From NCBI GenBank assembly GCA_022510905.1, contig JAFLSN010000002.1:1-64000 (forward strand): a stretch of DNA of 64,000 bases. The letters are read 5' to 3'. The translations under genes and the position numbers were made by a program. The stretch's first letter is position 1. Every line of letters starts with the position of its first letter. Shown in pieces: positions 27,171 to 61,663 of this stretch. Under the pieces are notes generated by a model. The model worked only from the letters and a program-made list of their open reading frames with translations, searched no databases and was not told the DNA's origin. Source of the stretch: Treponema sp. (lineage in GTDB: Bacteria; Spirochaetota; Spirochaetia; Treponematales; Treponemataceae).

Positions 27171-27320
27171 TCGACACACCTCGATGCAAAAGACTGGTAT
27201 GATTTTTCTGAAATTTGATAACCGGGCAGTCGTAAAGGAACCTTCAGAACTTGTCGGGTATGTTGTGCCTATGAGGATTGCACAAAAGGGAACATGCCCC
27301 TCGTTTCCGCACAAATAAAA
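27171..27320 (+). repeat. Family-A dispersed repeat, copy 1
   Basis: Begins TCGACACACC and ends near TTTCCGCAC, the two ends shared by the family. In plus orientation it holds a 44-codon mini-ORF (ATG 27184) whose product contains MIFLKFDNRAVVKE. The middle is shorter than in copy 4. Confidence 0.65.
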
Positions 27321-27420
27321 CACCCGCTGCGTCCTAGCGGCAACCCGAACCGCCATAAAGCAATTCTTGCGTCAGAATGCCGGCTCCGTTCGCTCGCAGC
27401 AAGAAATGGCAGGGGCTAAG

Positions 27421-27516
27421 TTGAATGCGGCAGAATTGCCACTGCCAAATGCAGCGGAGCTCCCCGCGCCAAATGCAGCGGAGCTCCCCGCGCCAAATGC
27501 AGCGGAGCTCCCCGCG
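27421..27516. repeat. 24-bp tandem repeat, four units
   Basis: Three exact units from 27445, each encoding NAAELPAP in one plus frame, preceded by one diverged unit at 27421. Each unit contains the palindrome GGAGCTCC. It lies in intergenic DNA and could mark a decayed gene end or a slippage-prone site. Confidence 0.85.
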
Positions 27517-27974
27517 CAGAATTCGCTAGTGCACATGGCAGCCACGAGACCGCCATGCACCTTCCGGCCGTATGTGTAAATCGCTGGCTGTTATAGAATT
27601 GGCTCCATGATGGCTGGTATCGGTGACTGTCTGGGGCAGTTCTGCACCATCGTAACGGAAACCTTCTCGCTGAGCTTTTGCAGCCAGAACACCGGTGTCT
27701 TGCCCTCGGACGCTCCTTCCGCGCACACGCCTTTCCCCGATTAGGGGCTCATCAATCTCATGGTCGCCGATTTTCCGCCTTGCTTTGCGGATGTTCTTGC
27801 TTTCGGACTGCCCTTTGCAGGGAGGACGTGGCAACAGTTCCCGGTGTTCCTGTTCACCCTCGCAGATGCATACCGCCTGTGCTGCCGTGAGGTTGTTCTT
27901 GGTGCGCAGGGGGATCCTGTTCATTTTTGTGTCGTAAGCTTTCGCTTTGTAACTGACTAAACCCTGTTCTGGAT

Positions 27975-28061
27975 GATTCGTGCGGAAAGGGTGCATGCCG
28001 CGTTTTTGCGAAGCCAGCCACCGGCTTGAAGCCTTGCTTTTATGTCTGGGTGTGTTGATTC
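27975..28061 (-). repeat. Family-A dispersed repeat, copy 2 (internally deleted)
   Basis: Carries both family ends (GATTCGTGCGGAAA at the left, GGGTGTGTTGATTC at the right on the plus strand) and the GCGAAGCC block, but lacks the mini-ORF core. Confidence 0.65.
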
Positions 28062-28170
28062 AACCGGGCGAGGGCCGCAAAGATTATGCCGGATTCCTCT
28101 TTCCGTGCTGTCTCTGCCATGTGTATGCATGTTTTTTGCTCTGAATCTTTTTCAATTCATAAAATCCATA

Positions 28171-28199
28171 TTGTATAAAAAAAGGTTTTTAACTATACT
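28171..28199 (+). promoter_or_regulatory. Promoter of the oad genes
   Basis: TTGTAT, 17-bp spacer, TATACT. The predicted start near 28206 gives a leader of about 97 nt before the oadG ATG. Confidence 0.65.
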
Positions 28200-28302
28200 A
28201 GGCTAACGCATTGTTCCTTATTTTAGCCTTTTGGCCATGGAGCGGGGCTGTGCGGTGGCGCATGTAAGTGCACGGACTGATTTTTGTTTTTTGGGAGGAC
28301 GT

Positions 28303-28563
28303 ATGACGATTGCTCAGATGATAGGACAGAGCGGCATTCTCACGCTGTTGGGGATGGGCGTGGTGTTTCTGTTCCTGGTTATTATGATTGTATGCATGAA
28401 CCTCTTGCATTTGGTGCTGCATGCCCTGCACCTTGACACAGCTGAGCCGGCATCAAAACAAGCCGCGCCCGCTGCGGGCCCAGTGCCTCAGGCTCCGGCT
28501 CAGGACACGCTTTCTGTTGTGGCTGCAATCGCCGCCGCTGTGCGCGAAAAACAGTCAGTGTAA
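28303..28563 (+). CDS. oadG: Oxaloacetate decarboxylase gamma subunit (OadG)
   Basis: An 86-residue small membrane subunit. It has one N-terminal membrane helix (GILTLLGMGVVFLFLVIMIV), then an Ala/Pro-rich linker and a short C-terminal segment ending VVAAIAAAVREKQSV, as in OadG proteins, where it joins the alpha and beta subunits of the sodium pump. The start at 28303 is set by GGGAGG just upstream; the in-frame ATG at 28231 would add 24 unconserved residues. oadA and oadB follow in order. Confidence 0.85.
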   Translation: MTIAQMIGQSGILTLLGMGVVFLFLVIMIVCMNLLHLVLHALHLDTAEPASKQAAPAAGPVPQAPAQDTLSVVAAIAAAVREKQSV

Positions 28564-28647
28564 CATGTCAGTAAGGCCGGAGGGAAGGCAGTGATGGTTC
28601 CTTCTTCGGCCGGTTCTATAATCTGGATTTCATTTTGGAACTTTGTA

Positions 28648-28653
28648 TATAAT
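28648..28653 (+). promoter_or_regulatory. Candidate internal -10 element before oadA
   Basis: TATAAT 22 bp upstream of the oadA ATG, with no good -35. It may add a transcript for oadA apart from oadG; an imperfect hairpin (28575-28611) lies just upstream. Confidence 0.3.
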
Positions 28654-28674
28654 TCGTGAGGATAAGAGGTTTTT

Positions 28675-30729
28675 ATGGCTAAGGTTGGTATTTCAGAATT
28701 GGTACTGCGTGACGCGCACCAGTCGCTCCACGCAACTCGTATGACAACCGCGGATATGCTTCCTGCATGCGGCATGATTGATAAAATCGGTTACTGGGCC
28801 GTGGAAGGCTGGGGTGGCGCAACCTTTGACAGCTGCATCCGCTTTTTGAATGAAGACCCGTGGGAACGCCTTCGCAAGCTCCATGCGGCCATGCCCAATT
28901 CAAAGATAATGATGCTCCTTCGCGCCCAGAATCTTCTGGGGTACCGCCCTTATGCCGATGATGTGGTGGAAAAATTCGTAGAGACGGCGGCCACCAACGG
29001 CATCGGTGTGTTCCGCATCTTTGATGCCTGCAATGACCCGCGCAACATGGAGTGCGCCACCAAGGCCGCCAAAAAAACGGGAAAGCATGTGCAGATGGCC
29101 ATAAGCTATGCCGTAACTCCATTCCACACGATTGAAAAATATGCGGAGCTTGCCAAGACCTATTCGGATTTCGGAGCGGACTCAATCTGTATCAAGGACA
29201 TGTCGGGCCTTTTAAAGCCTTATGATGCCTACGACTTGGTCAAGGCAATCAAGGCGAAGTGCGACCTTCCGATTGAGATACACTCGCATGCGACGACCGG
29301 TCTATCCGTGGCGACGCTTCTCAAAGGTGCGGAAGCAGGGGCCGACGTGCTGGACACTGCCATCAGCTCCATGTCGATGGGAACATCACACAGCCCCACC
29401 GAAACTGTGGTGGAAATGCTCAAAGGGTCTGATCTGGACACTCAGCTTGACATTTCCGCCCTGCTTGAAATCGCGGCATACTTCCGCGAAGTTCGTAAGC
29501 ACTATTCTTCACTTGAATCTTCCTTTTTAGGAGCCGACACCCGCATCCTGCTTTCCCAGGTGCCCGGCGGTATGCTTTCCAACCTTGAAAAACAGCTTAA
29601 AGGGCTTGGCGCGAGTGACAAGATGGATGAAGTGCTTGCCGAGCTTCCCAAAGTGCACAAGGATGCCGGTTATGTTCCGCTTGTTACGCCAACCAGCCAG
29701 ATTGTAGGTTCACAGGCCGTGTTAAACGTGGTGCAGGGGCGCTACAATATGATGACCAAGGATTTCCGCGACCTGCTTACCGGACGCTTGGGAAAACTGC
29801 CGGCCGAACCCAACGCCGATTTGGTCAAAAGGGCCCTTGAGGAGAATAAAATGGAATCCGTGGTCGAGTGCCGCTATGCAGACCTTCTTGAACCTGAATG
29901 GGACAAGATGGTTCAGGAAGCCACGGAAAAAGGTGGAAACGGTTCTGTTGAAGACACGCTCACTTATGCCATGTATCCAAATGAGGCACCCAAATTTTTT
30001 GCGACGAGGGCAAAGGGGCCTGTTGACGCTGCTACGGAGTTCGCCAAAAAAGATGCTCCTGCCGCCGGGCCTGGCACCAAAGAAAACAAGGGCGGCTCTT
30101 ATACCGTGACTGTGAACGGTGCTGCTTACAATGTGACAAGCGGTCCCGCCGGAGATTCCATGAGTGTTACCGTAAATGGCACTCCGTACAACATCACGTT
30201 TGGTGCGGCCGGTGCCGTAAGTGCGCCTTCCTCGGGAGCTGTGGCCGCATCCCCTGCTGTAAGTGGCGGTGTCGATGTGACGGCGCCTGTCGCTGGCACA
30301 TTGCTAAAGCAGTGCTTTGCTGATGGCACGTCAGTCACCAAAGGTCAGACCGTGATAGTCATCGAGTCCATGAAAATGGAGCTTGAAGTAAAGGCTTCAG
30401 CTGACGGCACGATTACATATTCTGTTCCCGTTGGTACACAGGTTGCAAACGGACAGGTGCTTGCCTCCATCGGCGGCGTTGTGTCAGCCGCACCCGCTTC
30501 CTCGCAGGCGAATCCTTCGGGCTCCGTGGTAAAAGCTCCTGTGGCAGGCGTGTTTCTCAGGACCGCAGTGCCGGAAGGGGCAACCGTCAAAGCTGGCGAC
30601 ACCATAGTTGTCATTGAGTCCATGAAAATGGAGCTTGAAGTAAAGGCCGGGGCATCTGGTTCCGTGCACTTCCTTGCAAGTGCTGGCACCCAGCTTGCAA
30701 ACGGACAGGCCGTGGCAGAAATTCGGTAG
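28675..30729 (+). CDS. oadA: Oxaloacetate decarboxylase alpha subunit with two biotinyl domains
   Basis: A 684-residue carboxyltransferase subunit. The catalytic barrel begins VLRDAHQSLHATRM, continues with SICIKDMSGLLKPYDA (lysine region) and the metal motif IEIHSHATTGLS, and the conserved C-terminal carboxylase domain follows. After an Ala/Gly/Pro linker come two biotinyl domains in tandem, each with ESMKMELEVKA; the biotin lysines are residues 567 and 651. Most OadA proteins have one such domain. The DNA around the two motifs is almost identical, suggesting a recent duplication. With OadB and OadG it decarboxylates oxaloacetate and exports Na+. ATG 28675 follows an AAGAGG ribosome site. 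Confidence 0.94.
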   Translation: MAKVGISELVLRDAHQSLHATRMTTADMLPACGMIDKIGYWAVEGWGGATFDSCIRFLNEDPWERLRKLHAAMPNSKIMMLLRAQNLLGYRPYADDVVEKFVETAATNGIGVFRIFDACNDPRNMECATKAAKKTGKHVQMAISYAVTPFHTIEKYAELAKTYSDFGADSICIKDMSGLLKPYDAYDLVKAIKAKCDLPIEIHSHATTGLSVATLLKGAEAGADVLDTAISSMSMGTSHSPTETVVEMLKGSDLDTQLDISALLEIAAYFREVRKHYSSLESSFLGADTRILLSQVPGGMLSNLEKQLKGLGASDKMDEVLAELPKVHKDAGYVPLVTPTSQIVGSQAVLNVVQGRYNMMTKDFRDLLTGRLGKLPAEPNADLVKRALEENKMESVVECRYADLLEPEWDKMVQEATEKGGNGSVEDTLTYAMYPNEAPKFFATRAKGPVDAATEFAKKDAPAAGPGTKENKGGSYTVTVNGAAYNVTSGPAGDSMSVTVNGTPYNITFGAAGAVSAPSSGAVAASPAVSGGVDVTAPVAGTLLKQCFADGTSVTKGQTVIVIESMKMELEVKASADGTITYSVPVGTQVANGQVLASIGGVVSAAPASSQANPSGSVVKAPVAGVFLRTAVPEGATVKAGDTIVVIESMKMELEVKAGASGSVHFLASAGTQLANGQAVAEIR

Positions 30730-30822
30730 AATTCCGAAACCGTTTTGCATGGGCCGTCAGCTTTTGCGGAACGGTGCGCCTCTGGTGTATTGGGTAAGAC
30801 TAGATTTGGAGAAGGATAGTGT

Positions 30823-32274
30823 ATGCCACTTTCAAAAACTGAAAACAATAAAAAAATAGCCCTTGTCATGCTGGCCATTATTGCCTGTGCGTCGGTGATT
30901 TCTTTTGCCACAACGGTGTTTGCGCAGGACAGTGTGCAGGCCGCTAATGTTGCGCCGCAGGGAACCGGTCTCAACAAGGTTATCAAGCGGACCGAAAACT
31001 GGAACGGCCGTTACGATATTTCCCCCTCGCAATTCATACAGAACATAGGGAAGTCTACCGGCATCTACAAAATGATTCACCGCCAGACAGATGCGGAACG
31101 TATGGCAGAGCTTGAGCAGGAACAGGCCGCTGAACTTGCCGCACACACAGATCCGTTCGCTGGAACGGAGGTGGCGGGCTGGAAATATCTGGTTATGATT
31201 GCCATCGGCTTCCTTATCGTGTACCTCGGTGCCGCGCGGGGGTTCGAGCCGCTTCTGCTCATACCGATTGGCTTTGGCACCATTCTGGTGAACATACCCG
31301 GAGCCGGTATGGGAGATGCTCCTGACGGCATGTTGCGCATCATCTACAGTGCCGGTGTGGGAAACGAATTTTTTCCGATGCTGATTTTCATGGGTATCGG
31401 TGCCATGACAGATTTTGGTCCGCTTATTGCCAATCCAAAGATGGCGCTTTTGGGGGGAGCCGCCCAGTTCGGCGTGTTCTTTACGCTGTTCGGCGTTTCT
31501 GTGATGAACATGCTTCCCTCCATTGACTATACGATTTTACAGGCATGTGCCATTGCCATCATAGGCGGCGCGGACGGCCCCACGTCAATCTACGTGTCTG
31601 GAAAACTTGCCCCCGAGATGATGGCCGTTATCGCGGTGGCGGCGTATTCGTACATGGCTCTGGTTCCCATGATTCAGCCGCCGATTATGAAGGCGCTCAC
31701 AACCAAAAAAGAACGGCTTATCCACATGGATCAGCTTCGGCCCGTGGGCAAAACGGAGCGGGTGCTTTTTCCGCTGCTGCTTCTTGTACTTGCCATCCTG
31801 CTTCTGCCTCCGGCGGCTCCGCTTATCGGAATGCTTGCGTTCGGCAATTTTGTCAAGCAGAGCGGCGTGGTGGACAGGCTCTCAAAGACGATGGAAAATG
31901 AACTGATGAACATCGTTTCGATTCTGCTTTCACTCGGCGTGGGAAGCCAGATGACCCCCGAAAAGATTATGAACCCCAATTCTGTGGGAATCATTTTGCT
32001 GGGGTTGGTGGCGTTCTGTGTGGCCACGTCTGGCGGTGTGCTGATGGCAAAACTTATGAATGTGTTCCTTCCGGCAGGCAAAAAAATCAATCCGCTGATT
32101 GGAAGCGCGGGCGTTTCTGCGGTGCCAATGGCGGCGCGTGTTTCAAACAAGGTGGGCCAGGAGTTCGACCCGTCGAATTTCCTGCTCATGAATGCCATGG
32201 GACCAAATGTGTCTGGCGTGATTGGAACGGCTATTGCGGCAGGCGTATTTATCGCAACTTACGGGGGACTGTAA
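30823..32274 (+). CDS. oadB: Oxaloacetate decarboxylase beta subunit (sodium pump)
   Basis: A 483-residue polytopic membrane protein that couples decarboxylation of carboxybiotin to Na+ export. Conserved features are [48 protein letters not shown] with the functional Asp, and the C-terminal [19 protein letters not shown] and [17 protein letters not shown]. It has an N-terminal extension of about 110 residues with its own hydrophobic segment ([20 protein letters not shown]) before the usual OadB start. A GGAGAAGGA site precedes ATG 30823 and a terminator follows. Confidence 0.94.
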
Positions 32275-32324
32275 TCTGCACGGTGCCAGCCGAACGATTA
32301 AAATGTAAAAACCATTAAACACAA

Positions 32325-32358
32325 AACAGCCGGGTAGCATCTCGGCTGTTTTTTTTTC
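32325..32358 (+). terminator. Intrinsic terminator after oadB
   Basis: An 8-bp stem AACAGCCG/CGGCTGTT with a 10-nt loop, followed by a run of T. Confidence 0.85.
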
Positions 32359-32791
32359 GGTCATCGGGTGGCAGGATAAAAAAATCCATGGATTGGATTC
32401 TGTAAGTTTGGAAGTGGTAGTGCTTGGTTTGTGCATAAGGGTGCATGCCGTGTTTCTGCGAATCCAAGGGCGAAATGAGTCCTTGGCTGCGATACCTTAT
32501 AATAACAGCACATCCAGCAAACCCTAAAGGTTTCTCTGTCACTACCAAAAGGTCAAGTTCCAGAAAAATCATACCACGCCTTGTGCGCCGGGGTGTGTCG
32601 ATTTTGCCAAAACGGATTGTCTGCTTTGTGCGCAAGGCTCGTAGCTGCGGTATGCTTTATATTTCATCAAGCACAAGCATCGGCCGTTTTTCCGCACGAA
32701 TAAATTATTAAAAAATCGGATCTGCACAAACATCAAGGCAGGCTGCATGCCGTTCACCCTTCATTGAATTGCGGTGATGAGCTGCTTGTTT
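32359..32791. other. Intergenic stretch between oadB and addA
   Basis: About 430 bp between convergent genes. It holds family-A copy 3 (32428-32603); no gene or clear terminator for addA is visible in the rest. Confidence 0.6.
32428..32603 (-). repeat. Family-A dispersed repeat, copy 3
   Basis: On the minus strand it carries a diverged mini-ORF beginning MIFLELDLLVV (ATG at 32569) and ends near the complement of GTGCATAAGG. A short inverted repeat CCAAGG/CCTTGG (32464-32486) brackets the shared GGCGAAATGA block. Confidence 0.65.
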
Positions 32792-35700
32792 TTATTCCTC
32801 GGAAGAGATGGACCAGTCAGCTGCGTTTGCGCGCGAGAGCTCTGTTTCAAGGTCAACGGCTGCGCAGTTCCGGGTGATGTCAAATGCCTGTGCAAACCTT
32901 AGATAGTATAGCCAGCACTGCACGTTGTCCGGCGTGCATCCGAGCATGGCGGAAACTGCGTCGCGGTAGCAGGCGAGCTGTGTGTAGTAAAGTTCAGGCT
33001 GTATGCTCTGGTTTGTTTTGTAGTCAACCACGACTACCGTTCCGTCTGCCTTTGTGAACACAAGGTCAATCTGTCCGCTGATGATTTTTGATCCGATGCG
33101 GCTTTTAAAGCCGTATTCCGTTTTGTGCCATAGCGATGCTTTTGCGGCTTTTCCCAGGTCGGAATCAAGGAAGGCCTGCTGCATGGTTCTGCATGTTTTG
33201 TCCAGCTCCGCGATTTTTGCGCTGTTGTTTTCAAGCCCTGCGATTTCACGGTTTGAAACAACGGGCTTGTTTCCGCTTATGGCGGCTTCGAGATAGGCGT
33301 GGGCGATGGTTCCGAAGTTCGCAAAGCTGAAGCGGGCTTCTCCGCTCCTGTTTCGTGATTCATGCACCAGGCGGTTTATGCACTGGTATGGAACTTCGCT
33401 ATCTTGTGGCATATGTTTGATGGCTTCGTCGTCGGGCTCGTGCAGATGGGCCGGAATCACAAAGGAATGTGGCACCGCTTCTTTTGCGATGGCATCAGCG
33501 CATTCATAGCGGCCTTTAAGCGCCTTGATGCATTCAGCTTTTGTTTTTTTTCCTTCCCGCTCAATTTTACGCGGCATTGGAGGTATGGCTGAAAAAGTGA
33601 ACGGCGCCGATGGTTTTGCGTTCTGGCCGTCAATGTAAAATTCCAGCACGGGAGAAAGCACCTGCAGAATGGTGCGGGGATTTTTTTTGCCGCCTGGAAG
33701 ATAGTCAACACAGTCTTCTTTGAATGTTCCAGAAAATGTTCCGGTCATATACAGCTCCGATTTTGCGCGGGTAAGGGCCACGTAGGTAAGCCTCCTAAGC
33801 TCGGCGCTCCGCATGGCGGCCTGCTCTTCTTTGACCGATGTATAAAAAAAGTTGGAGCGGTCCTGCAGCAGGCAAAGCTGTGCCGGCGTGTTCACGGTTA
33901 TTCCAAATTCTTTGCTCGCGTACACTGGCGTGACATTCGCTTCGTTTCCAGAAAGCTTGTCGGCTCCGCACAGAAACACCACAGGGTATTCGAGGCCTTT
34001 GCTTTTGAAGATGGTCAGCAGGTGCACGCTTTCGTTTTTTTCAAGAGGAATGTCCATGTTGTCAAGCCTTGAGGATTCGTCTTCGTATGTGCGCATGCTG
34101 TCAACAAAATCGGCGAGCGTCATTGCGTTTTGTTCAGCCTGCCTTGCAAGCTCAAACATACGGTCGTAAAGATTGGCGTACATTGAAACATCGGTGTTCC
34201 ACATGGTTTCGTAGCGGTAGCCTGTTTGGTACCAAAGCTCCGTGACTGTGCGTGTAAGAGGAGAAAGCCGTGCACGGTGCATGAAGCAGAAGAACCATGC
34301 GGCGGTTTTGAGATAGCGCAAGGCGCTCTGCGGACAAAGTCCTGATGCCTCTGCTTCAAACGCGGGCCGGTGCTGCAAGAGCAAAACGGATGCTTCATCG
34401 GCGTTGAGATTTAAAAACGGTGAGCGGAGTATCTTTGCGAACGCAAGAGAGTCTTCGGGGTAGGCGCACAGCCTTAGCATGGCGAACATGTCGTTTACCG
34501 GGCCGTCAGAAAAAAATCCTGTCACAACTTCCGTTGTGTAGGGAATGCCTTCCGCAAGCAGCGCCCGCTCAAACAGAGGTTGGAGTTTGTATGTTCTGAA
34601 CAGAATCGCTATGTCTCCGGGGCGTATGGCCTGCTTTCCGTCTTGGCCTGAGACAAGTGACTTGATTTTTTGCGCGACCCAGCGGGCTTCTGCCTGCTCA
34701 CAGTCTACTTCACTGTCTTTGCACTTTTGCTGGGTGTCGTACAGCGCCACGTGCACATGGGGGTCAAACTGTGTAGCCTGCTTTGCATCTGGAACGTCTA
34801 CCGTGCGGTAGATGGCTTCATATGATGGAATGTCCGTGCCCTCGGCAGGTTCTGTAAAAAATACGGCGCGTTTGCCGAGTGTGTCCGCCTGGTTTTGAAG
34901 TGGCGGATAAGACGAGCCTCCGAATATGCAGTTGAATGCCGCGATGAGCGCAGGGTGCGAACGGTAGTTCGTTTTGAGCTCAAGGTTTCCGTCTGCGAAG
35001 TCGCGGCTCAATGCGCGGAAAACGGACACATCGGCTCCACGGAACCTGTATATGCTCTGCTTTTCATCTCCCACAAAAAAAAGCTTGTCGGGGCAAAGCT
35101 CTTCCACGGAAGGAACTCCCTTGTCCATGCGTTCCTGCCGCTCTGCCAGCAAAAACAGAAGATCCCGCTGCATGGAATTGTTGTCCTGAAATTCATCAAT
35201 CATGATGGCGCTGTATTTTTGCTTTTCAATGGCACGGAGCTCGGGGTGGTCGCGCAGCACGCACCGGGCGATGTCAGCGACATCCGCAAAAGTCAGCGTG
35301 CTTGAATTGCGTTTTAAGTTCAACACCATGTCCTGAAATTCAGAAAGCAGCTCCATGGCCGCGCACGTTACCGAAAATCCCCTGAGATAGTTCGCAAGCG
35401 AAACAAGCGTGGAGTGAATGCCTCTTAAATTTTTTAAAAGACTTTTTATTTCTTCCGAACCTTTTGGCCCCCCGATGAGTTTGTGCTTTACCGGCGGGCA
35501 GAGTGAAAGAACGAAATCTGTGCATGGAGCGCACTGGTCTTCAAAATGCGTACTGTCCAGCACCGGACATTCCGGAAGTTCCTGCGTGGCTTTGAGCGCT
35601 TCCGAGAGGTTTTTCATAAACACGCCGTCTTTTTTTCCATCAAAATCATCTACGGCATGCCGAATGTCTTGGAGGACAGAACAGGCTTCGCGTGAAGTCT

Positions 35701-39276: not shown

Positions 39277-39430
39277 CAGCAATCTTTAACAAAATAAAAG
39301 TCTTTCTTGCAGTGCGCGAATGCAAAGTTGAACCTGCATAAAACCTGTTTGCCATGCCTGTGGAGCGGATGTGGCGCAACCATGTGGAAAAGGATTTTGA
39401 ATGCTTCTGACTGTTCCGTGGCCTTTTTTC

Positions 39431-39683
39431 ATTCGTGCGGAAAAGGTACATGCAGTGCTTCTTCGAAGCCTGTCCTTGGCCAGAAGCTTTGCCGCAAGTA
39501 GTGGCGAAATGAATGGTATGTGCCCTTGGTTGCAATACCGTAGAAGAACGACACACCCAGCAAAGTCTAAAGTTTTTTATCACTGCTCGGTTGTCAAATT
39601 TTAGAAAAATCATACCTCGCTTCACGGGGTGAATGCTGCTCCACAGAGTGAAGCCTTGCTTATGCATCGGGGGTGTTGATTCG
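39431..39683 (-). repeat. Family-A dispersed repeat, copy 4 (most complete)
   Basis: Full-length copy of about 250 bp. On the minus strand an ORF from ATG 39611 encodes MIFLKFDNRAVIKNF and runs on through the whole element. Blocks shared with copy 5 are ATTCGTGCGGAAA, CGAAGCC, GGCGAAATGAA, TAGAAGAAC, ACACACCC and CGGTTGTCAAATTT. Confidence 0.75.
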
Positions 39684-42329: not shown

Positions 42330-42370
42330 CCGTGCTGCTTTGTCCTGCCCGGAGATTGGTGCGCACGTTC

Positions 42371-42478
42371 ATTGTTTGAAACGCCGTTCCGCAACGGAGT
42401 GAGAAACGGTAGCCAACAGCCAGGTTTTGAAAAACTCGGAGCTAAAACCAGACGCGCCATCTGTGCGGCTGATTTTAG
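42371..42478 (-). repeat. Family-B dispersed repeat, copy 1
   Basis: Shares the blocks GAAACGCCGTTC, GTGAGAAACGG/GTGAAAACCGG, TTTTG(A/C)A(A/G)AAA and AAAACCAGACGC...GGCTGATTTTA with the two copies at 44.3-44.5 kb. On the minus strand it reads LKSAAQMARLVLAP, similar to LKSAAQIERLILTS in copy 3. It fills most of the 340-bp gap before argG. Confidence 0.65.
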
Positions 42479-42607
42479 GCATTCATTTTTATGAAACCAC
42501 GATGGCACCATGCCGCGTTATTTTGCGCAGATACGTCCGTTCGGGAAAAGTTCCTGCCGACACAGTTTCAGTGCTGCCGAATCCCTGGTGAATGTCCCAT
42601 GTTCCTC

Positions 42608-44045: not shown

Positions 44046-44248
44046 GCCGGCCTGTGTCAAAGCCGTGTCGTTTCGGTCTTTTTCCGTCAGAAAAAATGCT
44101 TTTCAGATGATTCGTGCGGAAAGGATACATACCGTGCTTCCGCGAAGCCAGCCCCTAGCTTGAAGTCATGCTGCAAGCCAAGGGCGAAATGAAGGGTATG
44201 TACCCTTGTCTGCGACACTTTAGAAGAACAACACACCCTAAAGGTTCC

Positions 44249-44400
44249 TATATTTCCAACAATAAAAAAGCATCAAGTTTTTCATAGCTGGAAACGCCGT
44301 TCCTCGGCGAAGTGAAAACCGGCAGCCAATAACCAAGTTCTTGCAGAAAATCCGAAGTTAAAATCAGCGGCGGTATTCTGACGCTGATTTTAAACGTTAC
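44249..44400. repeat. Family-B dispersed repeat, copy 2
   Basis: A 152-bp unit from TATATTTCCAAC to GATTTTAAACGTTAC. It contains a degenerate long hairpin at its left end, CGCCG/CGGCG, and AAAATCAGCG/CGCTGATTTT near its right end. It is directly repeated by copy 3. Confidence 0.75.
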
Positions 44401-44551
44401 TATATTTCCAACAATAAAAAAGTATCAATTTTTTATTGTTGGAAACGCCGTTCTTCGGCGAAGTGAAAACCGGCAGACACTAACCGAGCTTTTGCAGAAA
44501 AACTGAAGTTAAAATCAGACGCTCTATCTGCGCGGCTGATTTTAAACCTTC
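44401..44551. repeat. Family-B dispersed repeat, copy 3
   Basis: A 151-bp unit directly following copy 2. Its left hairpin is a perfect 17-bp stem (44405-44421 with 44429-44445, loop GTATCAA); a CGCCG/CGGCG hairpin follows immediately. The insert of copies 2 and 3 is flanked by TTCC on both sides, a possible short target duplication. Confidence 0.75.
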
Positions 44552-44944
44552 CTTTACCACTGCACGGTTGTCAAATTTCAGAAAAATCATATCCCGTTTA
44601 ATGGACTGGAGCCTTGTTTTTATGTCTGGGGGTGTCGATTTCGCAGCAAACGTCATGTCGATAAAGGAACAGGTATTTTTAATCCGTGTGCCGTGAGCTT
44701 TCGCCTTTTGCGGCAAACTGATCACACCGCAGGCTGTCTGAACCGCTCTGCATTCCTGGGCTTTTTGCATGGAACGTGCCTTCTGTCTTGCCCCAGCTTT
44801 ATGCGGAATCGAATTCTGGGCGCATGGTCCTGAAAACGCAGGGGGCGGGTAGAAAGTCCTGCATTGAACTTTTAAAAACATTTTGCACCACATGCCGAAC
44901 ACGTTGCGCAAAAACGAAAAATACTTTTCTAACATCGGCTCCTG

Positions 44945-48792: not shown

Positions 48793-49175
48793 GGGGGTGC
48801 ACCGGTTTCGACATGCAGGAGTAATCTTGTGTTGCAGGTGAGGCTGTCGCCTGGTCTCTGATACAGACGAACCCTATAACTGCCAAACGTAGAGAAGACG
48901 AAGAGTCTGAAAACGAGCAGTTCGCTCTGGCTGCGTAAGCGGCTTGAACCGGAACCCGTGCTGCGCTGTTCCTAGCGGTGCGGTGTTCTGTTGCCGACAG
49001 GGACTTGCCCTGCTCCAGGTCTGAATGGGGCAGGGGACATCCGAAAGGAATTTCAGAATACGGAGACGATGCCTGTGAAGCCGCTACCGTTTCCCGACAA
49101 CCACCTCGCTTCAATAAACCTGTAGAGGCGCCTGGTTGGCCTGCATGGACGGGAGTTCGACTCTCCCCACTTCCA
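48793..49175 (+). ncRNA. ssrA: Transfer-messenger RNA
   Basis: A tmRNA, which rescues stalled ribosomes by adding a degradation tag. The 5' end GGGGGTG pairs with CACTTCC at 49168-49174 as the acceptor stem (with two G-U pairs). The conserved GCACCGGTTTCGAC follows the 5' end, and the T-arm GGGAG/TTCGACT/CTCCC precedes the 3' end. The CCA is not encoded. The tag frame, read from GCC after ATAACT, gives AKRREDEESENEQFALAA and stop (48884-48940). The ALAA end is typical; the long, charged front half is unusual. Confidence 0.93.
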
Positions 49176-49187
49176 CAATTTTCACAA

Positions 49188-55229: not shown

Positions 55230-56600
55230 ATGAGTATTGCACAAGTCGTTCTGTTCGCCGTCCTTGGCACTTTCATAGTGTTCACGGTGTTTGTGATTAT
55301 AAAAAACGTCATAGCGCCAACAAAGCTTGGTGGCATTCCACGGCTTATTAAAGACGGAAAGATAGCTGCGGCCACCCGGACAGCAAAAGCGGTGGTGGCA
55401 AAAAATCCGCGCGATTATGTGGCCCACTACTGGCTGGGCGAGGCGTACTTCGCAGACGGCAAGCAGGAACTTGCCTTCATGGAATACAAGATGGTCAACG
55501 AAAACGCCGTGTTCGACGGACAAATCAACGAGCTGCAGTTCCGCAAGCGTATGGCGGAGCTGTACAGCAAAAACGGCGAATCTGACAATGCTCTCAAAGA
55601 ATATCTGCTGCTTACCAACATGGAGCCCAAGAATGCCGAAAACGACTTCAACGTTGCACGCATCTACGAATCCCAGGGGCATGGTGCCCAGGCGATAGGT
55701 TTTTACCAGAAGGCGCTTAACACAAATCCGCGCCATGCAAAGGCTCACGCGGCGCTGGGCTATCTGCTGTTCCGCAACAAACAGTACGAAAAGGCAAAAA
55801 AAGAAATCGACACCGCCATCAAGCTGAGCCCTGGAACATATTCAAGCTACTATTATCTTGGCAAAGTCCTGAAAGAAAGCAAGGACTATTCAGGCGCCAT
55901 CAAAGCTCTTGAGAAAGCCGAGCGCGACCCGGAGTTCCGTCAGCGGGCGCTGATTGAGCGCGGTTCCTGCTTTATGGCCGTTTCCCAGGTTGACAATGCC
56001 ATCGGCGCGTTCGAGCGTGCCGTAAAAGTGGCCAGAAACGAAGGCAGCCAGGAAACTTTGTTTGCGCGCTATTTTCTTGCCGCCTGCTATGAAAATACAC
56101 GCAAGCTTGATCTTGCCATTGCCCAGTGGGAAAAAATCTACCAGCGCAACCGCGGCTTCCGCGATGTAAGCGCAAAACTGGATGAATACAGGGAGCTCCA
56201 GTCAAACGACAGCATGAAAGAATACCTTACGGCGGCTCCCGAGCAGTTTGTGGAAATCTGCAAAAAAACGGCGGCGGCGGGTCTTTCGCTTGCACCAAAA
56301 AAAATCGACAGCACATCATACGGCTGCAAGATGCTTGCCATAGAGCAGAAAAACGAAAAAAACTGGATGAGCATGAGGCAGCAGCTGTTCCTTGTTGAAT
56401 TCCACCGAGAAACAAATCCTGTTGAAGACGGCGTTTTACGGAAGCTTGCGGACGAAATCAAGGCCCAGAACTGCAGCAAGGGCGTGATATGCGCAAGCGG
56501 CGGGTTTTCAAAATCAGCGGTTTCATATGCGGAGGAACGCCCTATCGTGCTGATAGACAAAGACAAGCTTGAAGGCATTTTGTCCAAAGCCGGCATATAG
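55230..56600 (+). CDS. Membrane TPR protein with degenerate Mrr-like C-terminal domain
   Basis: A 456-residue protein. It has an N-terminal membrane helix (VVLFAVLGTFIVFTVFVIIK), then about seven TPR units (HYWLGEAYFADGKQELAFME, AHAALGYLLFRNKQYEKAKK, SSYYYLGKVLKESKDYSGAI). The last ~115 residues follow the Mrr-type restriction endonuclease fold: FVEICKKTAAAGL, then QLFLVEFHRETNPVEDG, then KGVICASGGFSKSAVSYAEE and IVLIDKDKLEGIL. Active members carry a Q-x-K core; here that place reads E-F-H, so nuclease activity is unlikely. The fold assignment is by pattern. It is first of three closely spaced plus-strand genes. Confidence 0.82.
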   Translation: MSIAQVVLFAVLGTFIVFTVFVIIKNVIAPTKLGGIPRLIKDGKIAAATRTAKAVVAKNPRDYVAHYWLGEAYFADGKQELAFMEYKMVNENAVFDGQINELQFRKRMAELYSKNGESDNALKEYLLLTNMEPKNAENDFNVARIYESQGHGAQAIGFYQKALNTNPRHAKAHAALGYLLFRNKQYEKAKKEIDTAIKLSPGTYSSYYYLGKVLKESKDYSGAIKALEKAERDPEFRQRALIERGSCFMAVSQVDNAIGAFERAVKVARNEGSQETLFARYFLAACYENTRKLDLAIAQWEKIYQRNRGFRDVSAKLDEYRELQSNDSMKEYLTAAPEQFVEICKKTAAAGLSLAPKKIDSTSYGCKMLAIEQKNEKNWMSMRQQLFLVEFHRETNPVEDGVLRKLADEIKAQNCSKGVICASGGFSKSAVSYAEERPIVLIDKDKLEGILSKAGI

Positions 56601-56611
56601 GCGGTAAATAT

Positions 56612-57376
56612 ATGAAGCTGCTGTGCGTTTCAGACCAGATTGACCCATTCGTGTACTCAACATCGGTAAAGGAACGCTACGGGGATGTTGATGCCGTGTT
56701 CTGCGCGGGCGACCTTCCCATGGACTATGTGGACTTTATTGTTACGGCACTGAACAAGCCCACGTTCTTCATTTTTGGAAACCACGACTTGAAGGACTTC
56801 CACCTGTACAAAAAAAGTGTCCGGGTTGCGCAGCCTTCTTCGTTTACGGCGATGGATTCCATGAATAATTCCCACGGCGGCGACTATGTGAGCAATCGTG
56901 TGCTACGCTGCAAGCATCTTTCGTTTACAGATTCTCATGGAAAAACCACCCCGCTGCTCATCGCAGGTGTATCGGGCTCCCTGCGCTACAACAACGGTCT
57001 TGACCAGTATTCTGAGCGCGAGATGTTTTTTCAGCTTTTGGCGCTGGTGCCGGGGCTTTTGTGGAACCGCCTTCGCTACGGGCGCTGGTGCGATATTTTT
57101 TTGACCCACGCGAGTCCCCGCCATATTCACGACCGTGAAGACCAGTGCCACAAAGGGTTTGAATGTTTCAACTGGTTCATAAGAAAATTTCATCCTGCGC
57201 TGCTCATCCACGGACATATACACCTGTATGACTTGCAGGACTGCCGTGTTACCATGAGCCACAGCACCATGGTGGTAAACGCATACAGCCGAATCACTAT
57301 CGACATGGAGCCGGAATTTCCGGCGGCAAAAGGAGAAAGCCTTGGATTTACCCTATCTGTCCACACAAACGAGTGA
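56612..57376 (+). CDS. Calcineurin-like metallophosphoesterase
   Basis: A 254-residue two-metal phosphoesterase: VFCAGDLPMDYVDF (motif II Asp), FFIFGNHDLKD (GNHD/E), DIFLTHASPRHIHD, and LLIHGHIHLYD (GHxH). Motif I, usually D-x-H, reads CVSDQID, so the first metal His is absent. The substrate is unknown: nucleotide, phosphoprotein or nucleic acid are all possible. It begins 11 bp after the TPR/Mrr-like gene, and its last 35 nt overlap the start of the ParB-like gene, pointing to one operon. Confidence 0.86.
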   Translation: MKLLCVSDQIDPFVYSTSVKERYGDVDAVFCAGDLPMDYVDFIVTALNKPTFFIFGNHDLKDFHLYKKSVRVAQPSSFTAMDSMNNSHGGDYVSNRVLRCKHLSFTDSHGKTTPLLIAGVSGSLRYNNGLDQYSEREMFFQLLALVPGLLWNRLRYGRWCDIFLTHASPRHIHDREDQCHKGFECFNWFIRKFHPALLIHGHIHLYDLQDCRVTMSHSTMVVNAYSRITIDMEPEFPAAKGESLGFTLSVHTNE

Positions 57377-58268
57377 GGATTTTTCCAAAGCGCACACAAA
57401 GGCCCTGTTCAATGAGATTCAGCATCTGCTGAACCCTGAGGAGGCCACGCTAATTTCGTTTTCAGACATAAAGAAACTGCTCAAGCCCAGGAACGAAGTG
57501 TACAAAGGCATGCAGGTGGTTCCCGTAAAGCTTATTGCCGGAAGCGAAGGCCGGTACAAGGATTTTGACAACAACTTTTTTCCAAAAAGCAATTTTCTCA
57601 AAAACCGCTGGGAGCGGATTGACATGGCCCATCTTCAGAATGTGGCGTTGCCGCCCATCAGCCTGTACGAGCTGGGTGGCCTCTATTTTGTGCGGGACGG
57701 AAACCATCGGGTGTCTGTGGCAAAAAGCCGCGGGGTTGAGACCATCGACGCGGAAGTGGTGAGCCTGCAAAGCGAAGTCAAGCTGAAGCCGGGCTCTTCG
57801 CTTGAAGACATGATTGCGCAGGTTGTGGCCTACGAAAAGCGTGTGTTCTATGCCGAAACCAATTTTGGCGACATCACGGACTGCTGGGTTCTCGACTTCA
57901 GCACTCCTGGAAAATACGATGTTGTGTACAACCACATCATCGTGCACAAATATTACATCAACATGGGCATCTCGGAGGATATTCCGTTTGAAGATGCCGT
58001 GCTTTCCTGGTACCAGACCGTGTATCTTCCTGTGATTCGTACCATAGAGACGCACCACATCATGCGCCACTTCAAAGGACTCACAAAAAGCGACCTTTAC
58101 GTGTTCCTCATAAAATACTGGGACGAGCTTAAGCAGAAATTCGGCAATGCCGTGAGCCTCGACGAAGCCGCCGAGGACTTCAAGAAAGACAACCGCAAAC
58201 GTCTTGGCACCAGAATCCTGAACTGGATTGCCCGCCAAAAAATGCGCAAAAACCTTTTGAACCTGTGA
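57342..58268 (+). CDS. ParB/Srx-like domain protein
   Basis: A 308-residue protein. The central motif LYFVRDGNHRVSVAKSRGVE is the ParB-type nucleotide/DNA-linked signature (G-x-H-R). About 100 residues precede it (KAHTKALFNEIQHLLNPEEA), and a helical C-terminus follows (VYLPVIRTIETHHIMRHFKG). No helix-turn-helix is obvious, so it is not a chromosome-partition ParB. The start is TTG 57342, supported by AGGAG seven bases upstream and by overlap with the phosphoesterase gene. It may be a regulator or a nucleotide-dependent enzyme. Confidence 0.8.
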   Translation: MDLPYLSTQTSEDFSKAHTKALFNEIQHLLNPEEATLISFSDIKKLLKPRNEVYKGMQVVPVKLIAGSEGRYKDFDNNFFPKSNFLKNRWERIDMAHLQNVALPPISLYELGGLYFVRDGNHRVSVAKSRGVETIDAEVVSLQSEVKLKPGSSLEDMIAQVVAYEKRVFYAETNFGDITDCWVLDFSTPGKYDVVYNHIIVHKYYINMGISEDIPFEDAVLSWYQTVYLPVIRTIETHHIMRHFKGLTKSDLYVFLIKYWDELKQKFGNAVSLDEAAEDFKKDNRKRLGTRILNWIARQKMRKNLLNL

Positions 58269-58310
58269 TTTTTTGTACGGATTCTGCCGATAATAAATGA
58301 TAGAGAAAAC

Positions 58311-58339
58311 TTGACGGCACTGTATTTCAATGGTAAACT
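58311..58339 (+). promoter_or_regulatory. Promoter of the partner-switching operon
   Basis: TTGACG, 17 bp, TAAACT with extended -10 (TGG). The leader to GTG 58498 is about 150 nt. Confidence 0.65.
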
Positions 58340-58497
58340 GATTGTGCTACACGCAGGAAATCGTTTTCACCCCGTACGGGGAATATCGTCCATACCGTGG
58401 GCATATTTGATACAAAGAGAGCTTTGAATTCTGGTGGCATGCATCCGTTAGATTGGTTTTGCAGGCTGCTGAGTGCCGGCGTACAGGGAGTACTACC

Positions 58498-60201
58498 GTG
58501 AATTTTAGTGAGACTTTTGCGTACATTCCGCTCTTCGGTGCATCGGCAGAAGCAGTGGTTGTTTTTGTACTGCTCCTTGTCATACGCATAAAAAGCAAAG
58601 CTCGTGTCAGTGCGCTCACCTTGCTGTCTGTGTTGGTAGGGGCGGTGGCTCTTTGTGCCGCCGCCATCATGAGCTTTTCCCGGTCGGCCCCGGCCTTGGC
58701 GGTGGTTGCCTATGCGCTTTGTGTCGCGCTGTTCTTTTGCATTCCTTATTGTGCGGTGCTGTGCACGTTTGAGCCAAAGCGCATAGAAAAACTCGTGCCG
58801 CCGGAAAAAAACGCTGCGTCGCCTGTGGATGAATCTGTGCCGCTTTCGCCAGAACTTTCTGCCGGGCAAAAACTGGCCGAGCTCTCCGAAGAAGACCGGA
58901 GCATGCTGGAAGTAAGCCATTCATTTATGACCCATGCCTCTTCTGCGTTTACCACCGACACTGGCATGGCCGAGCTTCTCGATTATATCAACAAAACGAT
59001 AAAATCTGCCATCAATGCCGATGGCGCTGCGGTGCTTATGGTTGACGATTTTGATGATGTGATTGCGGTCAAGGCGTTTGACGGGGATTTTCCGCCGCCT
59101 TACCAGCTTCCGGGAGACATGCCGCACAAGCCTGTGCGGGTGGCCACGAATTTCAAGTTTGCCCTGTTTCCGCTGCGCGACAATATTTTTGGTGAAATTG
59201 CCACCGCAGGAAAGGCTGAGCTCATCACAAACCCCGAGCTTGACGACCGCATCTACCAGAACGGGCCTGAAGAATTCCTTAAATGTGGCAGCTATATCAT
59301 TGTTCCGATGAAAGCCGCCGACAGCGTTATCGGAGTCACGGCGTTTGCCCGCACCCACGGCAATCCGGTTTTTACGGAAGAAGACTTTAAAACGGCTTCC
59401 ACGCTTTCTGATTTTGCCTCGGCCGCCATCCAGAATGTCATAACTGTAAAGGATGCCATAGAGCACAGCGAAATCACAAAGGAGGCGGACATAGCTTCAC
59501 GTATACAGAATATGCTGCATCCTGCGAAGCTTCCGGTGGTGCCGGGTACACAGACGGGTGTTGTCTGGAATCCTTCCGAAGGTGTGGGAGGCGACTACTA
59601 CGACATCGTGGTGTCCCGTCGCGACCGCGTTTCTTACATTATGAGCGACATCGCCGGAAAAGGTATAAACAGTATTGTCGTGATGATTATGCTGAGGGCC
59701 ATGCTGCGCCTTGTGGTCAATACCACGCAGAGCGCCGGTAAAATCTTGTCATGGGTAAACCGTGGTATCGCGGGGGAATCGTTCAGCACCGACCATTTTG
59801 GTTCTTGCGCGCTCATAAACTATGATCCAAAAAAGAAACAGCTGGAACTTGCCACAGGTGGTGATATTCCGGTCTTGTATTATGATGCCACACATGATAC
59901 AATAGAACAGCTCACGGAGCGTACTGAGCCGATTGGCGTGGAAAAGAACACCGAATACGCGGATATCGTCCGGCCTGTTTCGAGCGGCGACATTTTTGTT
60001 ACCTACACGGACGGTCTGGTTGAAGCTTTGAATGCTGACGGTGAGCAGTATTCCAAACAAACCTTGATGCAGCTGATTAAAGCAAACCATGCCGCATCGG
60101 GAAAAGACATCGCGGATATCATACGCGCTGATGTCAAAAAATTCAGTGGGGATGCAGTGCAGCATGACGATCAAACGCTGCTGGTTGTAAAAATGCAATA
60201 A
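58498..60201 (+). CDS. RsbU-type PP2C phosphatase with membrane and GAF domains
   Basis: A 567-residue protein: three N-terminal membrane helices (AVVVFVLLLVIRI, VSALTLLSVLVGAVALCAAA, LAVVAYALCVALFFCIPYCA), a GAF-like sensor (about residues 150-320) and a C-terminal SpoIIE/PP2C domain with GVGGDYYDI, YIMSDIAGKGINS, FVTYTDGLVEALNA and HDDQTLLVV. It should dephosphorylate the STAS protein encoded next, releasing it to bind the RsbW-like kinase. GTG 58498 has GGGAG upstream; the in-frame start at 58453 is less likely. Confidence 0.9.
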   Translation: MNFSETFAYIPLFGASAEAVVVFVLLLVIRIKSKARVSALTLLSVLVGAVALCAAAIMSFSRSAPALAVVAYALCVALFFCIPYCAVLCTFEPKRIEKLVPPEKNAASPVDESVPLSPELSAGQKLAELSEEDRSMLEVSHSFMTHASSAFTTDTGMAELLDYINKTIKSAINADGAAVLMVDDFDDVIAVKAFDGDFPPPYQLPGDMPHKPVRVATNFKFALFPLRDNIFGEIATAGKAELITNPELDDRIYQNGPEEFLKCGSYIIVPMKAADSVIGVTAFARTHGNPVFTEEDFKTASTLSDFASAAIQNVITVKDAIEHSEITKEADIASRIQNMLHPAKLPVVPGTQTGVVWNPSEGVGGDYYDIVVSRRDRVSYIMSDIAGKGINSIVVMIMLRAMLRLVVNTTQSAGKILSWVNRGIAGESFSTDHFGSCALINYDPKKKQLELATGGDIPVLYYDATHDTIEQLTERTEPIGVEKNTEYADIVRPVSSGDIFVTYTDGLVEALNADGEQYSKQTLMQLIKANHAASGKDIADIIRADVKKFSGDAVQHDDQTLLVVKMQ

Positions 60202-60225
60202 CCTCGATTCAAAAGGAGCACGAAT

Positions 60226-60564
60226 ATGGAACTGAAAATCAGAAAAAACGGCGATGTCTATATCATTGATGTGAACGGTGAGATGGACTTGTACAATTCC
60301 TACAAACTCAAGGAACTGGTTATGAAAATGCTTGAGAAGAACGTCAAGTCGTTTGTAATCAATCTTGAGCAGGTTGACTACATCGATTCATCCGGGATCG
60401 GTGCGCTCATTTATATCTGCTCGACCATCAAAAAGATGAACCTCAAACTGTACATTTCCAATATCCACGGTTCTGTCAAAAAGGTCATCGAGCTTACAAA
60501 ACTTATGGGATATTTTCCCATCGCCAACAGCGTTGAAGAAGCTTTGCTCATGATAAATGAATAG
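60226..60564 (+). CDS. STAS anti-sigma-factor antagonist
   Basis: A 112-residue single STAS domain. The switch motif VDYIDSSGIGALIYI carries the serine pair phosphorylated by RsbW-type kinases; the N-terminus is DVYIIDVNGEMDLYNSYKLK. An AAAAGGAG site precedes ATG 60226. It lies between its likely phosphatase and kinase. Confidence 0.93.
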   Translation: MELKIRKNGDVYIIDVNGEMDLYNSYKLKELVMKMLEKNVKSFVINLEQVDYIDSSGIGALIYICSTIKKMNLKLYISNIHGSVKKVIELTKLMGYFPIANSVEEALLMINE

Positions 60565-60579
60565 GAGGGATTATTCACC

Positions 60580-61131
60580 ATGGAAGAACTGAAAGAACTC
60601 CGTTCCGATGGGAGTGACCCGTTGTTTGACAAAGCGAACATGCTTTACAAGGAATTTCCGTCCGATTTTAGGCAGATTCGCTATTTTACGCTGCTGATTG
60701 TGCAGTCCGCGCCTCTGGAAATCAAGGAAATCAACCTGCTGGAGCAGCAGATAAGCGAAGTGATAAAAAACGCCGTCAAGCATGGCAACGAGTGCGACAT
60801 AACCAAAAAGGTGCACGTGTGGTATTCGTTTAGCCCGAGCCATGCCCATATCATTGTTGAGGACGAGGGCGAAGGTTTTAAAGATTTGGAGAAATGGAAC
60901 GAATTCAACCGCAAGCGCGTGGAATGTCTTCACAATTCAAATTTTGAAGAACTTTCAAATTTCGTGTCTTTCCGCACACGTAACAGTGATGACCAGGACG
61001 GCGGCAATGCCCTGTTCGCGGCGCTTGAATACTGGAATGGCGGGTTTGTGTACAATGACAAACGGAATGGCGTTGCCATGCTGAAACGTTTCCAACAGAA
61101 GCGTCATGGTGTTGCGATAGACGGCGACTAG
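60580..61131 (+). CDS. RsbW/SpoIIAB-type anti-sigma kinase
   Basis: A 183-residue GHKL ATPase. The N box is QQISEVIKNAVKHGNECD, G1 is IIVEDEGEGFKDLE and G2 is GGNALFAALEYW. By family logic it phosphorylates the STAS protein and holds an alternative sigma factor inactive. Which sigma factor is not shown; none is encoded nearby. An insert of about 35 residues lies between G1 and G2. The terminator after the stop closes the operon. Confidence 0.9.
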   Translation: MEELKELRSDGSDPLFDKANMLYKEFPSDFRQIRYFTLLIVQSAPLEIKEINLLEQQISEVIKNAVKHGNECDITKKVHVWYSFSPSHAHIIVEDEGEGFKDLEKWNEFNRKRVECLHNSNFEELSNFVSFRTRNSDDQDGGNALFAALEYWNGGFVYNDKRNGVAMLKRFQQKRHGVAIDGD

Positions 61132-61147
61132 GTTGTTGTGGATTGTG

Positions 61148-61173
61148 GCCGGCATGTTTATGCCGGCTTTTTT
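61148..61173 (+). terminator. Terminator of the partner-switching operon
   Basis: A perfect 8-bp stem GCCGGCAT/ATGCCGGC with a 4-nt loop, followed by six T. Confidence 0.9.
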
Positions 61174-61663
61174 ATGCGCTTGTGGTTCAACATTCTGTGT
61201 TTGTGTCCAGTTGCTACTGATATGCAATTATGTCAGCTTCATTTTCGGCAGGCGGAAAAATGCTGTCAGGTCACGCATTGAGCGTTTTTGCTTTGTGCAT
61301 GGGTGCATCCAGGGCATGAATCGCCTTGCGCTGCAAACTTTTCCAGACCGATTGCCCGGACAAGACGGCGTATGCCTAGCCAATTCTACAGCCATGCTGA
61401 ATTAAAGCCAGAATTCAGGTTATTTAAAGTCAATGGCAAATTGGTTCGTGCGGAAAGTGCGCATACTGTGCCTATGCGAAGCCACCCCCTGCCCTGAGGG
61501 CGTGGTTCGCTTTGTCGCTGCGTTTTAAGGTCTGGCAATGAGCGATAAAAGTAAAAATCCGCGTGACCGTTCCAAATCTATTTTCATTTTTCAGGTTCAA
61601 GAAAATTATTTATCACGCTTTAAAATGGTTTAACGCTTTTGGTTTTGTGCGTCATGCTGAGCA
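61174..61663. other. Intergenic region before coaX
   Basis: About 490 bp. It contains a partial family-A copy at 61443-61495; the rest shows no gene. The coaX promoter lies to the right. Confidence 0.6.
61443..61495 (-). repeat. Family-A dispersed repeat, copy 6 (end fragment)
   Basis: Only the GGTTCGTGCGGAAAGTGCGC ... TGCGAAGCCA end remains, corresponding to the left end of copies 2, 4 and 5. Confidence 0.55.

What the first reader, a model, noticed from the sequence alone, without database searches (positions are those of the whole stretch)
27171..61495. Dispersed intergenic repeat family A with a recurring mini-ORF
Six intergenic segments (27171-27320, 27975-28061, 32428-32603, 39431-39683, 44108-44640, 61443-61495) share ends (ATTCGTGCGGAAA and the complement of TCGACACACC) and internal blocks (GGCGAAATGAA, AGAAGAACnACACACCC). 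Copies 1, 4 and 5 keep a frame starting MIFLKFDNRAV, and copy 3 a diverged one (MIFLELD). Both orientations occur, and none lies in a gene. Conservation of a peptide-like frame across copies suggests either a mobile non-autonomous element or a small-ORF/structured-RNA family.
Basis: seen in the sequence. Interest (0 to 1): 0.7.

Follow-up and report, generated by a model that had tools for sequence, protein, structure and literature searches.

The report
Gene-less hairpin-ended jumping DNA repeat
A short DNA repeat with no gene of its own sits at more than a hundred places in this genome, mostly between genes, and in two closely related species its copies are present at some sites and absent at the matching ones; it folds into two conserved hairpins and is predicted to hop as single-stranded DNA, although most carrier genomes tested show no trace of the transposase family that would be expected to move it.

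Summary
The repeat family is real and far larger than the window shows. Its left end occurs 115 times in the genome (up to 3 mismatches; reversed control 0). In 758 kb of it, 42 of 54 end-to-end copies fall in size classes near 53, 72, 87, 92 and 213-253 bp; none lies mostly inside a called gene. The MIFLKFDNRAV frame shows no coding conservation. In relatives the element is a compact ~118 bp: target T[T/G]ATT, irregular hairpin 1, conserved linker, hairpin 2, usually ending TTGATT. Covariation is strong (22 of 40 pairs); 47 of 392 sampled genomes of the phylum match. Filled/empty sites in two sister species (two clean, two with differing flanks) show insertion 3' of TTATT or a near-match without target duplication, the signature of IS200/IS605-derived PATEs. 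But Y1 transposase was not found in the own genome nor in 17 of 23 matching genomes outside the genus, 12 of them single-contig, and none of 57 Y1 loci fetched is flanked by these ends. Verdict: PATE-like mobile family, new variant, mobiliser unknown.

The parts
27169..27318 (-). family A copy 1, 150 bp, both ends present, hairpin 1 shortened
27974..28060 (+). family A copy 2, 87-bp size class, lacks the linker and most of hairpin 2
32425..32603 (+). family A copy 3, decayed left end, right end present; weak match of the covariance model of the compact form (21.5 bits, E 0.04)
32689..32703 (-). lone left end (TTATTCGTGCGGAAA) without a right end, beside copy 3
39429..39681 (+). family A copy 4, fullest form in the window, 253 bp; covariance-model match 31.8 bits
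39444..39524 (+). copy 4, predicted hairpin 1 (arms 39444-39453 and 39515-39524, enlarged tip between)
   Evidence: arms read by eye
39531..39549 (+). copy 4, conserved linker TGCAATACCNTANAAGAAC
39552..39681 (+). copy 4, predicted hairpin 2 with enlarged loop, ending in the element-borne TTGATT
   Evidence: arms read by eye
44108..44640 (+). family A copy 5, enlarged by two copies of repeat B inside its right half
44239..44556 (-). two head-to-tail copies of repeat B (44239-44404 and 44391-44556, 84% identical), nested in copy 5
61442..61490 (+). family A copy 6, left-end fragment
   Evidence: left end read by eye

Best explanation
It is a gene-less mobile element, found immediately 3' of T[T/G]ATT, without target duplication at the sites compared, that folds into two conserved near-terminal hairpins joined by a conserved linker, and it likely moves as single-stranded DNA cut and rejoined by an enzyme supplied in trans, as palindrome-associated transposable elements (PATEs) of the IS200/IS605 type are thought to. 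Shown: the two-hairpin fold is conserved by compensatory changes; the left TTATT/TGATT varies with the site while the right TTGATT is fixed in letter-identical copies; sister species have filled and empty versions of the same site. Inferred: that the filled state is the derived one, that the folded top strand is DNA rather than RNA, that the small 53-92 bp forms are internal-deletion products that may still move, and that an IS200/IS605-like enzyme (resident but too divergent to detect, or visiting on a plasmid or phage) does the cutting.
For: Filled/empty pairs between G043 and G047 (~93% identical): sites 1 and 4 are clean, sites 2 and 3 agree but their flanks differ (site 2 by three bases and a second insertion nearby, site 3 by about 45 bp on each side); in each the element stands 3' of TTATT and the empty site holds TTATT (site 4: TTATA) once, no duplication. 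Five copies of one subtype in the fetched G483 stretches are letter-identical over 117 bp, preceded by TT, TT, TT, TT, TG and followed by unrelated bases; two further copies there are of another subtype. In the own genome the left pentamer is TGATT in 33, TTATT in 7, other in 14 of 54; of the 21 copies whose left pentamer is not TGATT none has the same pentamer at the right. Structure on 29 aligned copies: 93.7% of cells paired, 22 of 40 pairs with changes on both sides, 0 of 500 shuffles as high, slid structures 35-43%; ssDNA fold z -4.4 to -8.7 in four copies; G-T cells 78 against A-C 21. No inverted repeat of 12 bp or more in the copy 4 region. By a crude gene caller 0 of 54 copies lie mostly in a gene although coding fills 81-87%. 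PATE definition and their ~52-bp core-deleted forms: passages of PMC3119063.
Against: No Y1 transposase (PF01797) in the own genome (92% complete) nor in 17 of 23 matching genomes outside the genus, 12 of them single contigs; in the genus, 9 of the 26 genomes with 15 or more left ends have any Y1 match, against 52 of the other 174 (tallied by hand), so no association. None of 57 Y1 loci fetched is flanked by both ends. The right flank has a weaker T-bias of its own (+1: T 25, +2: T 24 of 54; left -1: T 36) and three of the four empty sites continue with AAT, so a two-sided preference is not excluded. An A-rich bulge in hairpin 1 (TAAYAAA) looked like a guide for TTATT but does not change with the target among species (by eye). 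25 of the 78 G-T cells come from one pair. Whether the strand acts as DNA or RNA is open.
Confidence: 0.6

Rival explanations
1. A mobile element of the same anatomy that is moved by an enzyme unrelated to IS200/IS605 Y1 transposases (for example a site-specific recombinase acting on folded single strands, or an IS110-like recombinase), the shared ATT at both ends being the crossover core.
For: Y1 not found in 17 of 23 matching genomes, including single-contig ones; both junctions share ATT and the empty site has it once, as expected also for a recombinase core; weak right-flank bias.
Against: Sequence preference is stronger on the left side; no partner gene was found near copies (the most widespread ORF cluster was not identified); such enzymes were not searched for here.
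Confidence: 0.25
2. A bacterial SINE-like retroelement: the folded top strand is an RNA, reverse transcribed at T-rich nicks by another element's reverse transcriptase.
For: Strongly conserved fold with a strand preference; T-rich target and 3-base overlap ATT at the junction.
Against: In the G043 and G047 stretches 24 copies have both ends and 13 matches are left end only at a loose threshold; 5'-truncated copies could not be counted because the right-end pattern was too loose. No expression data.
Confidence: 0.08
3. A family of regulatory or terminator RNAs that stays in place and is copied only by gene conversion or duplication.
For: Conserved structure and intergenic location.
Against: Filled/empty sites; unrelated flanks of identical copies; mixed orientation to neighbours (27 co-directional, 15 convergent, 12 divergent spacers); no Rfam family at gathering score in the window, seven own and seven related loci (sub-threshold matches only).
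Confidence: 0.04
4. A small-protein gene family (MIFLKFDNRAV).
For: Frame visible in copies 1, 4 and 5; 20 of 47 matches stay open for 20 codons or more.
Against: Stop at codon 9 in 20 of 47, start lost in 6, no codon-position bias; the compact form in relatives lacks that stretch.
Confidence: 0.01

Closest known systems
PATEs (palindrome-associated transposable elements) of Haloquadratum walsbyi (PMC3119063, passages read)
   Same: No terminal inverted repeats, palindromes near both ends, no target duplication, too short for a transposase, short target at the 5' side, ~52-bp core-deleted forms, other small repeats nested inside, insertion polymorphism between close relatives; there too insertions were seen in a strain whose IS200-type transposase genes were all pseudogenes.
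   Different: Bacterial (47 of 392 genomes sampled from the host's phylum match); no related IS605-type transposon found; a conserved linker and a covarying two-hairpin fold kept across genera; 17 of 23 matching genomes tested outside the genus lack a Y1 match altogether.
IS200/IS605 family (PMC7290912, passages read)
   Same: Insertion 3' of a tetra/pentanucleotide, no duplication, hairpin at each end.
   Different: No tnpA or tnpB gene in the element; no PF01797 or PF07282 match in the own genome.
REP/REPIN with TnpA-REP (PMC8266576, passages read)
   Same: Dispersed intergenic hairpins, non-autonomous.
   Different: Conserved foot is CGTGCGGAG rather than GTAG, two different hairpins; no association with Y1 genes in the genus (hand tally).
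BOX / MITE-type modular repeats (PMC10969869, passages read)
   Same: Modular size classes, intergenic, other repeats nested inside.
   Different: No terminal inverted repeats or target duplications seen here.

Membership tests
PATE | no terminal inverted repeats | tested here: met
   0 inverted pairs of 12 bp or more in the copy 4 region; aligned ends not complementary (by eye)
PATE | palindromes close to both termini | tested here: met
PATE | no target duplication | tested here: met
   two clean and two less clean filled/empty pairs; five identical G483 copies
PATE | short target at the 5' side | tested here: met
   a weaker right-side bias also exists
PATE | too short to code for a transposase | tested here: met
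   50 of 54 copies are 53-253 bp, the other four 380-570 bp; mini-frame not conserved
PATE | ends related to those of a known IS605-type transposon | tested here: not met
   none of 57 Y1 loci fetched is flanked by both ends; further Y1 matches were not fetched, and transposons outside these genomes not examined; hence filed as PATE-like only
IS200/IS605 | Y1 transposase gene in the element or genome | tested here: not met
   G000 none; 17 of 23 matching genomes none
IS200/IS605 | guide sequence pairing with the target | tested here: inconclusive
   A-rich bulge does not follow the target among species (by eye)
IS200/IS605 | single-stranded circular intermediate | not testable with these tools
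   needs experiment
REP with TnpA-REP | GTAG-type foot and TnpA-REP in the genome | tested here: not met
   foot CGTGCGGAG; no Y1 in G000
MITE | terminal inverted repeats and usually target duplication | tested here: not met
Rfam RNA family | match at gathering score | tested here: not met
   (window: tmRNA only, elsewhere); some searches gave sub-threshold matches only
IS110 / bridge-RNA element | DEDD recombinase and two-sided target pairing | not tested
   only the flank profile was seen

The most novel reading that the evidence does not exclude
An order-wide family of gene-less mobile elements that inserts with an IS200/IS605 signature yet spreads in genomes with no Y1 transposase, so that it is moved by a so far unrecognised enzyme acting on a two-hairpin single strand.
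Probability: 0.35. Interest if true: 0.85.

Novelty: new variant of a known kind. Interest (0 to 1): 0.6.

Why it matters
PATEs were described in a haloarchaeon where insertions were seen in a strain whose Y1 genes were all broken, which its authors found difficult to reconcile (PMC3119063, passage). This family poses the same puzzle in bacteria, in single-contig genomes with near-identical copies and no Y1 match, and gives a covarying structural model, a short target and sister species with polymorphic sites, so the question which enzyme moves such elements becomes directly testable.

Tried and rejected
Mini-ORF: rejected. Target duplication: rejected. Terminator-adjacent target: left flanks fold only slightly better (9 of 36 against 6 of 36 right flanks at -8 kcal/mol or below; in G000 9 against 17 of 54), rejected. 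Longer autonomous version with the same ends: in five contigs of G000, seven spans under 4 kb between a lone left end and a right end (one search listed 15 up to 8 kb); six of the seven right ends belong to shorter copies already paired and the seventh lies in a gene, so none is a candidate; the spans of 4-8 kb and the rest of the genome were not examined. Five lone or doubtful left ends of G043 (12-15 kb stretches): no matching right end seen for the lone ones; one stretch held a further complete 74-bp copy. Partner gene beside copies: the most widespread ORF cluster (6 genome groups, 8 loci) was not identified; no other cluster stood out. Guide pairing of the hairpin 1 bulge with the target: not consistent. 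Viral contigs: two exact patterns, no match; plasmids and phages: blastn with one G043 copy, no match. Genome-contig scan with an exact 20-mer: one hit, in an archaeal MAG, not followed; the tool may leave out near relatives of the window. Blastn with copy 4 in 38 relatives: none, which only shows that G000's copies are too diverged for blastn. Rfam Clostridiales-1 (E 0.0017 in a 351-base search) and rimP: below gathering, hairpin only. Right-only count in G043/G047: pattern too loose. Replication-strand bias: not tested. Prior description: searches; among the papers they listed (15 of 20, 11 of 11, 2 of 2, 12 of 20, 12 of 27, 2 of 2) none describes this family by title or abstract start; passages of six papers were read, no whole paper.

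Full report
OBSERVATION. The six segments are real. Searching the own genome with copy 4 gave 44 matching stretches with 40 of 160 candidates scored; the 23-base left end occurs 115 times with up to 3 mismatches, 58 forward and 57 reverse, control 0. In five contigs, one of which holds the window (758 kb of 2374 kb), 98 left-end and 72 right-end matches at loose thresholds gave 54 pairs under 700 bp. Of these 10 are 53-60 bp, 8 are 70-73, 12 are 85-88, 3 are 91-92, 9 are 213-253, 8 lie between 100 and 200 and 4 between 380 and 570. The unpaired ends (44 left, 18 right) include chance matches in genes. By a crude gene caller 0 of 54 pairs lie mostly in a gene (coding 81-87% per contig) and orientation to neighbours is mixed.

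THE MINI-ORF. Copies 1, 4 and 5 carry it, but over 47 matches of its first 24 bases in the sample and loci 20 stop at codon 9, 6 lost the start and 20 stay open for 20 codons or more; substitutions fall 63/46/49 on codon positions and 22% are synonymous against 24% expected. This is nucleotide conservation, not coding conservation.

THE FAMILY IN RELATIVES. Blastn missed relatives, and only 4 of 199 other genomes of the genus hold the 23-base left end with up to 3 mismatches, but a 16-base form (up to 2 mismatches) is enriched in 26 of 200, own included (15 or more hits, tallied by hand; control at most 4 per genome). In G043, G047 and others the element is compact: T[T/G]ATT, CGTGCGGAG, hairpin 1 with an A-rich one-sided bulge, linker near CTGCRAYACCTTATGAGAAC, hairpin 2, ATT. 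Mini forms of about 50 bp are one hairpin between the same ends. A covariance model built from 10 copies finds 18 matches with E up to 1, 12 of them below 0.01, in the own sample, among them window copies 4 and 5 and, weakly, 3, so the own family is this element with enlarged hairpin tips. In 392 genomes drawn from the phylum 47 match at E 0.01: 19 of the genus (own included), 16 of the family, 9 of the order, 1 of the class, 2 of the phylum; the weakest of these may be chance.

STRUCTURE. On a MAFFT alignment of 29 copies (chosen by hand from the 46 matches in 39 sources; copies with enlarged tips, near-duplicates, second matches and four overlapping opposite-strand matches were left out) with the fold of one copy, 93.7% of cells pair, 22 of 40 pairs change on both sides, 0 of 500 shuffles reach any observed measure, and slid structures pair 35-43%. 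Two rows are misaligned by one column there; with them shifted 66 of 1134 cells do not pair. G-T exceeds A-C 78 to 21, 25 of the 78 from one pair, which points to one strand, as do the lower fold energies of the plus strand in two copies.

MOBILITY. G043 and G047 are about 93% identical over many blocks. One search printed seven sites. Sites 1 and 4 are clean: the empty site has TTATT (site 4: TTATA) once, the filled site has TTATT, the element, TTGATT and the original right flank. Sites 2 and 3 read the same way but their flanks differ (site 2 by three bases and another insertion upstream, site 3 by about 45 bp on each side). Site 5 has diverged flanks, site 7 is shared by both species and site 8 is a truncated copy; they were not counted. 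In the G483 stretches five copies of one subtype are letter-identical over 117 bp, with TT or TG before ATT and unrelated bases after TTGATT; two more copies are of another subtype. Hence the left pentamer is target, the right end is element, and there is no duplication. That the filled state is the derived one is inferred.

WHO MOVES IT. The anatomy fits PATEs and IS200/IS605 ends (PMC3119063 and PMC7290912, passages). Yet neither PF01797 nor PF07282 is found in the own genome, and PF01797 is not found in 17 of the 23 matching genomes outside the genus that I tested (of 28), 12 of the 17 being single contigs. Three of the 12 (G033, G460, G505) have only one or two model matches; the others include G483, G528, G233, G333 and G368 with nine scored matches each, the cap. 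In the genus 61 of 200 genomes have a Y1 match, without association with element number: 9 of 26 rich genomes against 52 of 174 others. The match in G043 has three stops. None of 57 Y1 loci fetched is flanked by both ends; L122 holds a palindrome of two left ends beside its Y1 gene, not around it. A Y1 too divergent for the Pfam model, or one lost since, is not excluded. So the closest known kind is PATE, the membership test fails on relation to a known transposon, and the mobiliser is open.

SIZE CLASSES. In the full form GAAGCCTTGCT-like and CATACC stretches occur twice, and the 86- and 53-72-bp forms look like joins at those repeats (by eye), as described for core-deleted PATEs; whether small forms move themselves is not shown. 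Repeat B sits inside family A copies in the window and elsewhere.

Noticed in passing
window 42368-42488 and 44239-44556; L041, L042, L045, L046, L060: A second hairpin-rich repeat (B, about 165 bp) is found inside family A copies, with GAA-type bases on both sides; possibly another PATE-like family.
   Followed up: partly
L122 2053-2113; G000 C34 44969-45010: Palindromes made of two family A left ends facing each other, in two genomes; in L122 it lies beside an IS200-like Y1 gene.
   Followed up: partly
L199, L209, L214, L217: The same extra hairpin module (CGCTTGAAGCTTCGCTGCGAGG) sits at the tip of hairpin 1 in one copy and of hairpin 2 in others, and a similar piece is in the enlarged G000 copies.
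   Followed up: no
window 1-1734 and 2514-2917: Tandem repeats with a unit of about 99 bp within a 1533-codon frame (81-4682), and a second array further on.
   Followed up: no
window 27443-27520: Head-to-tail copies of a GC-rich unit of about 24 bp between copies 1 and 2.
   Followed up: no
window 48793-49178: tmRNA gene (Rfam RF00023, 120 bits).
   Followed up: no
L066 6425-6444: Exact 20-mer of the left end in an archaeal MAG contig; not examined further, may be chance.
   Followed up: no
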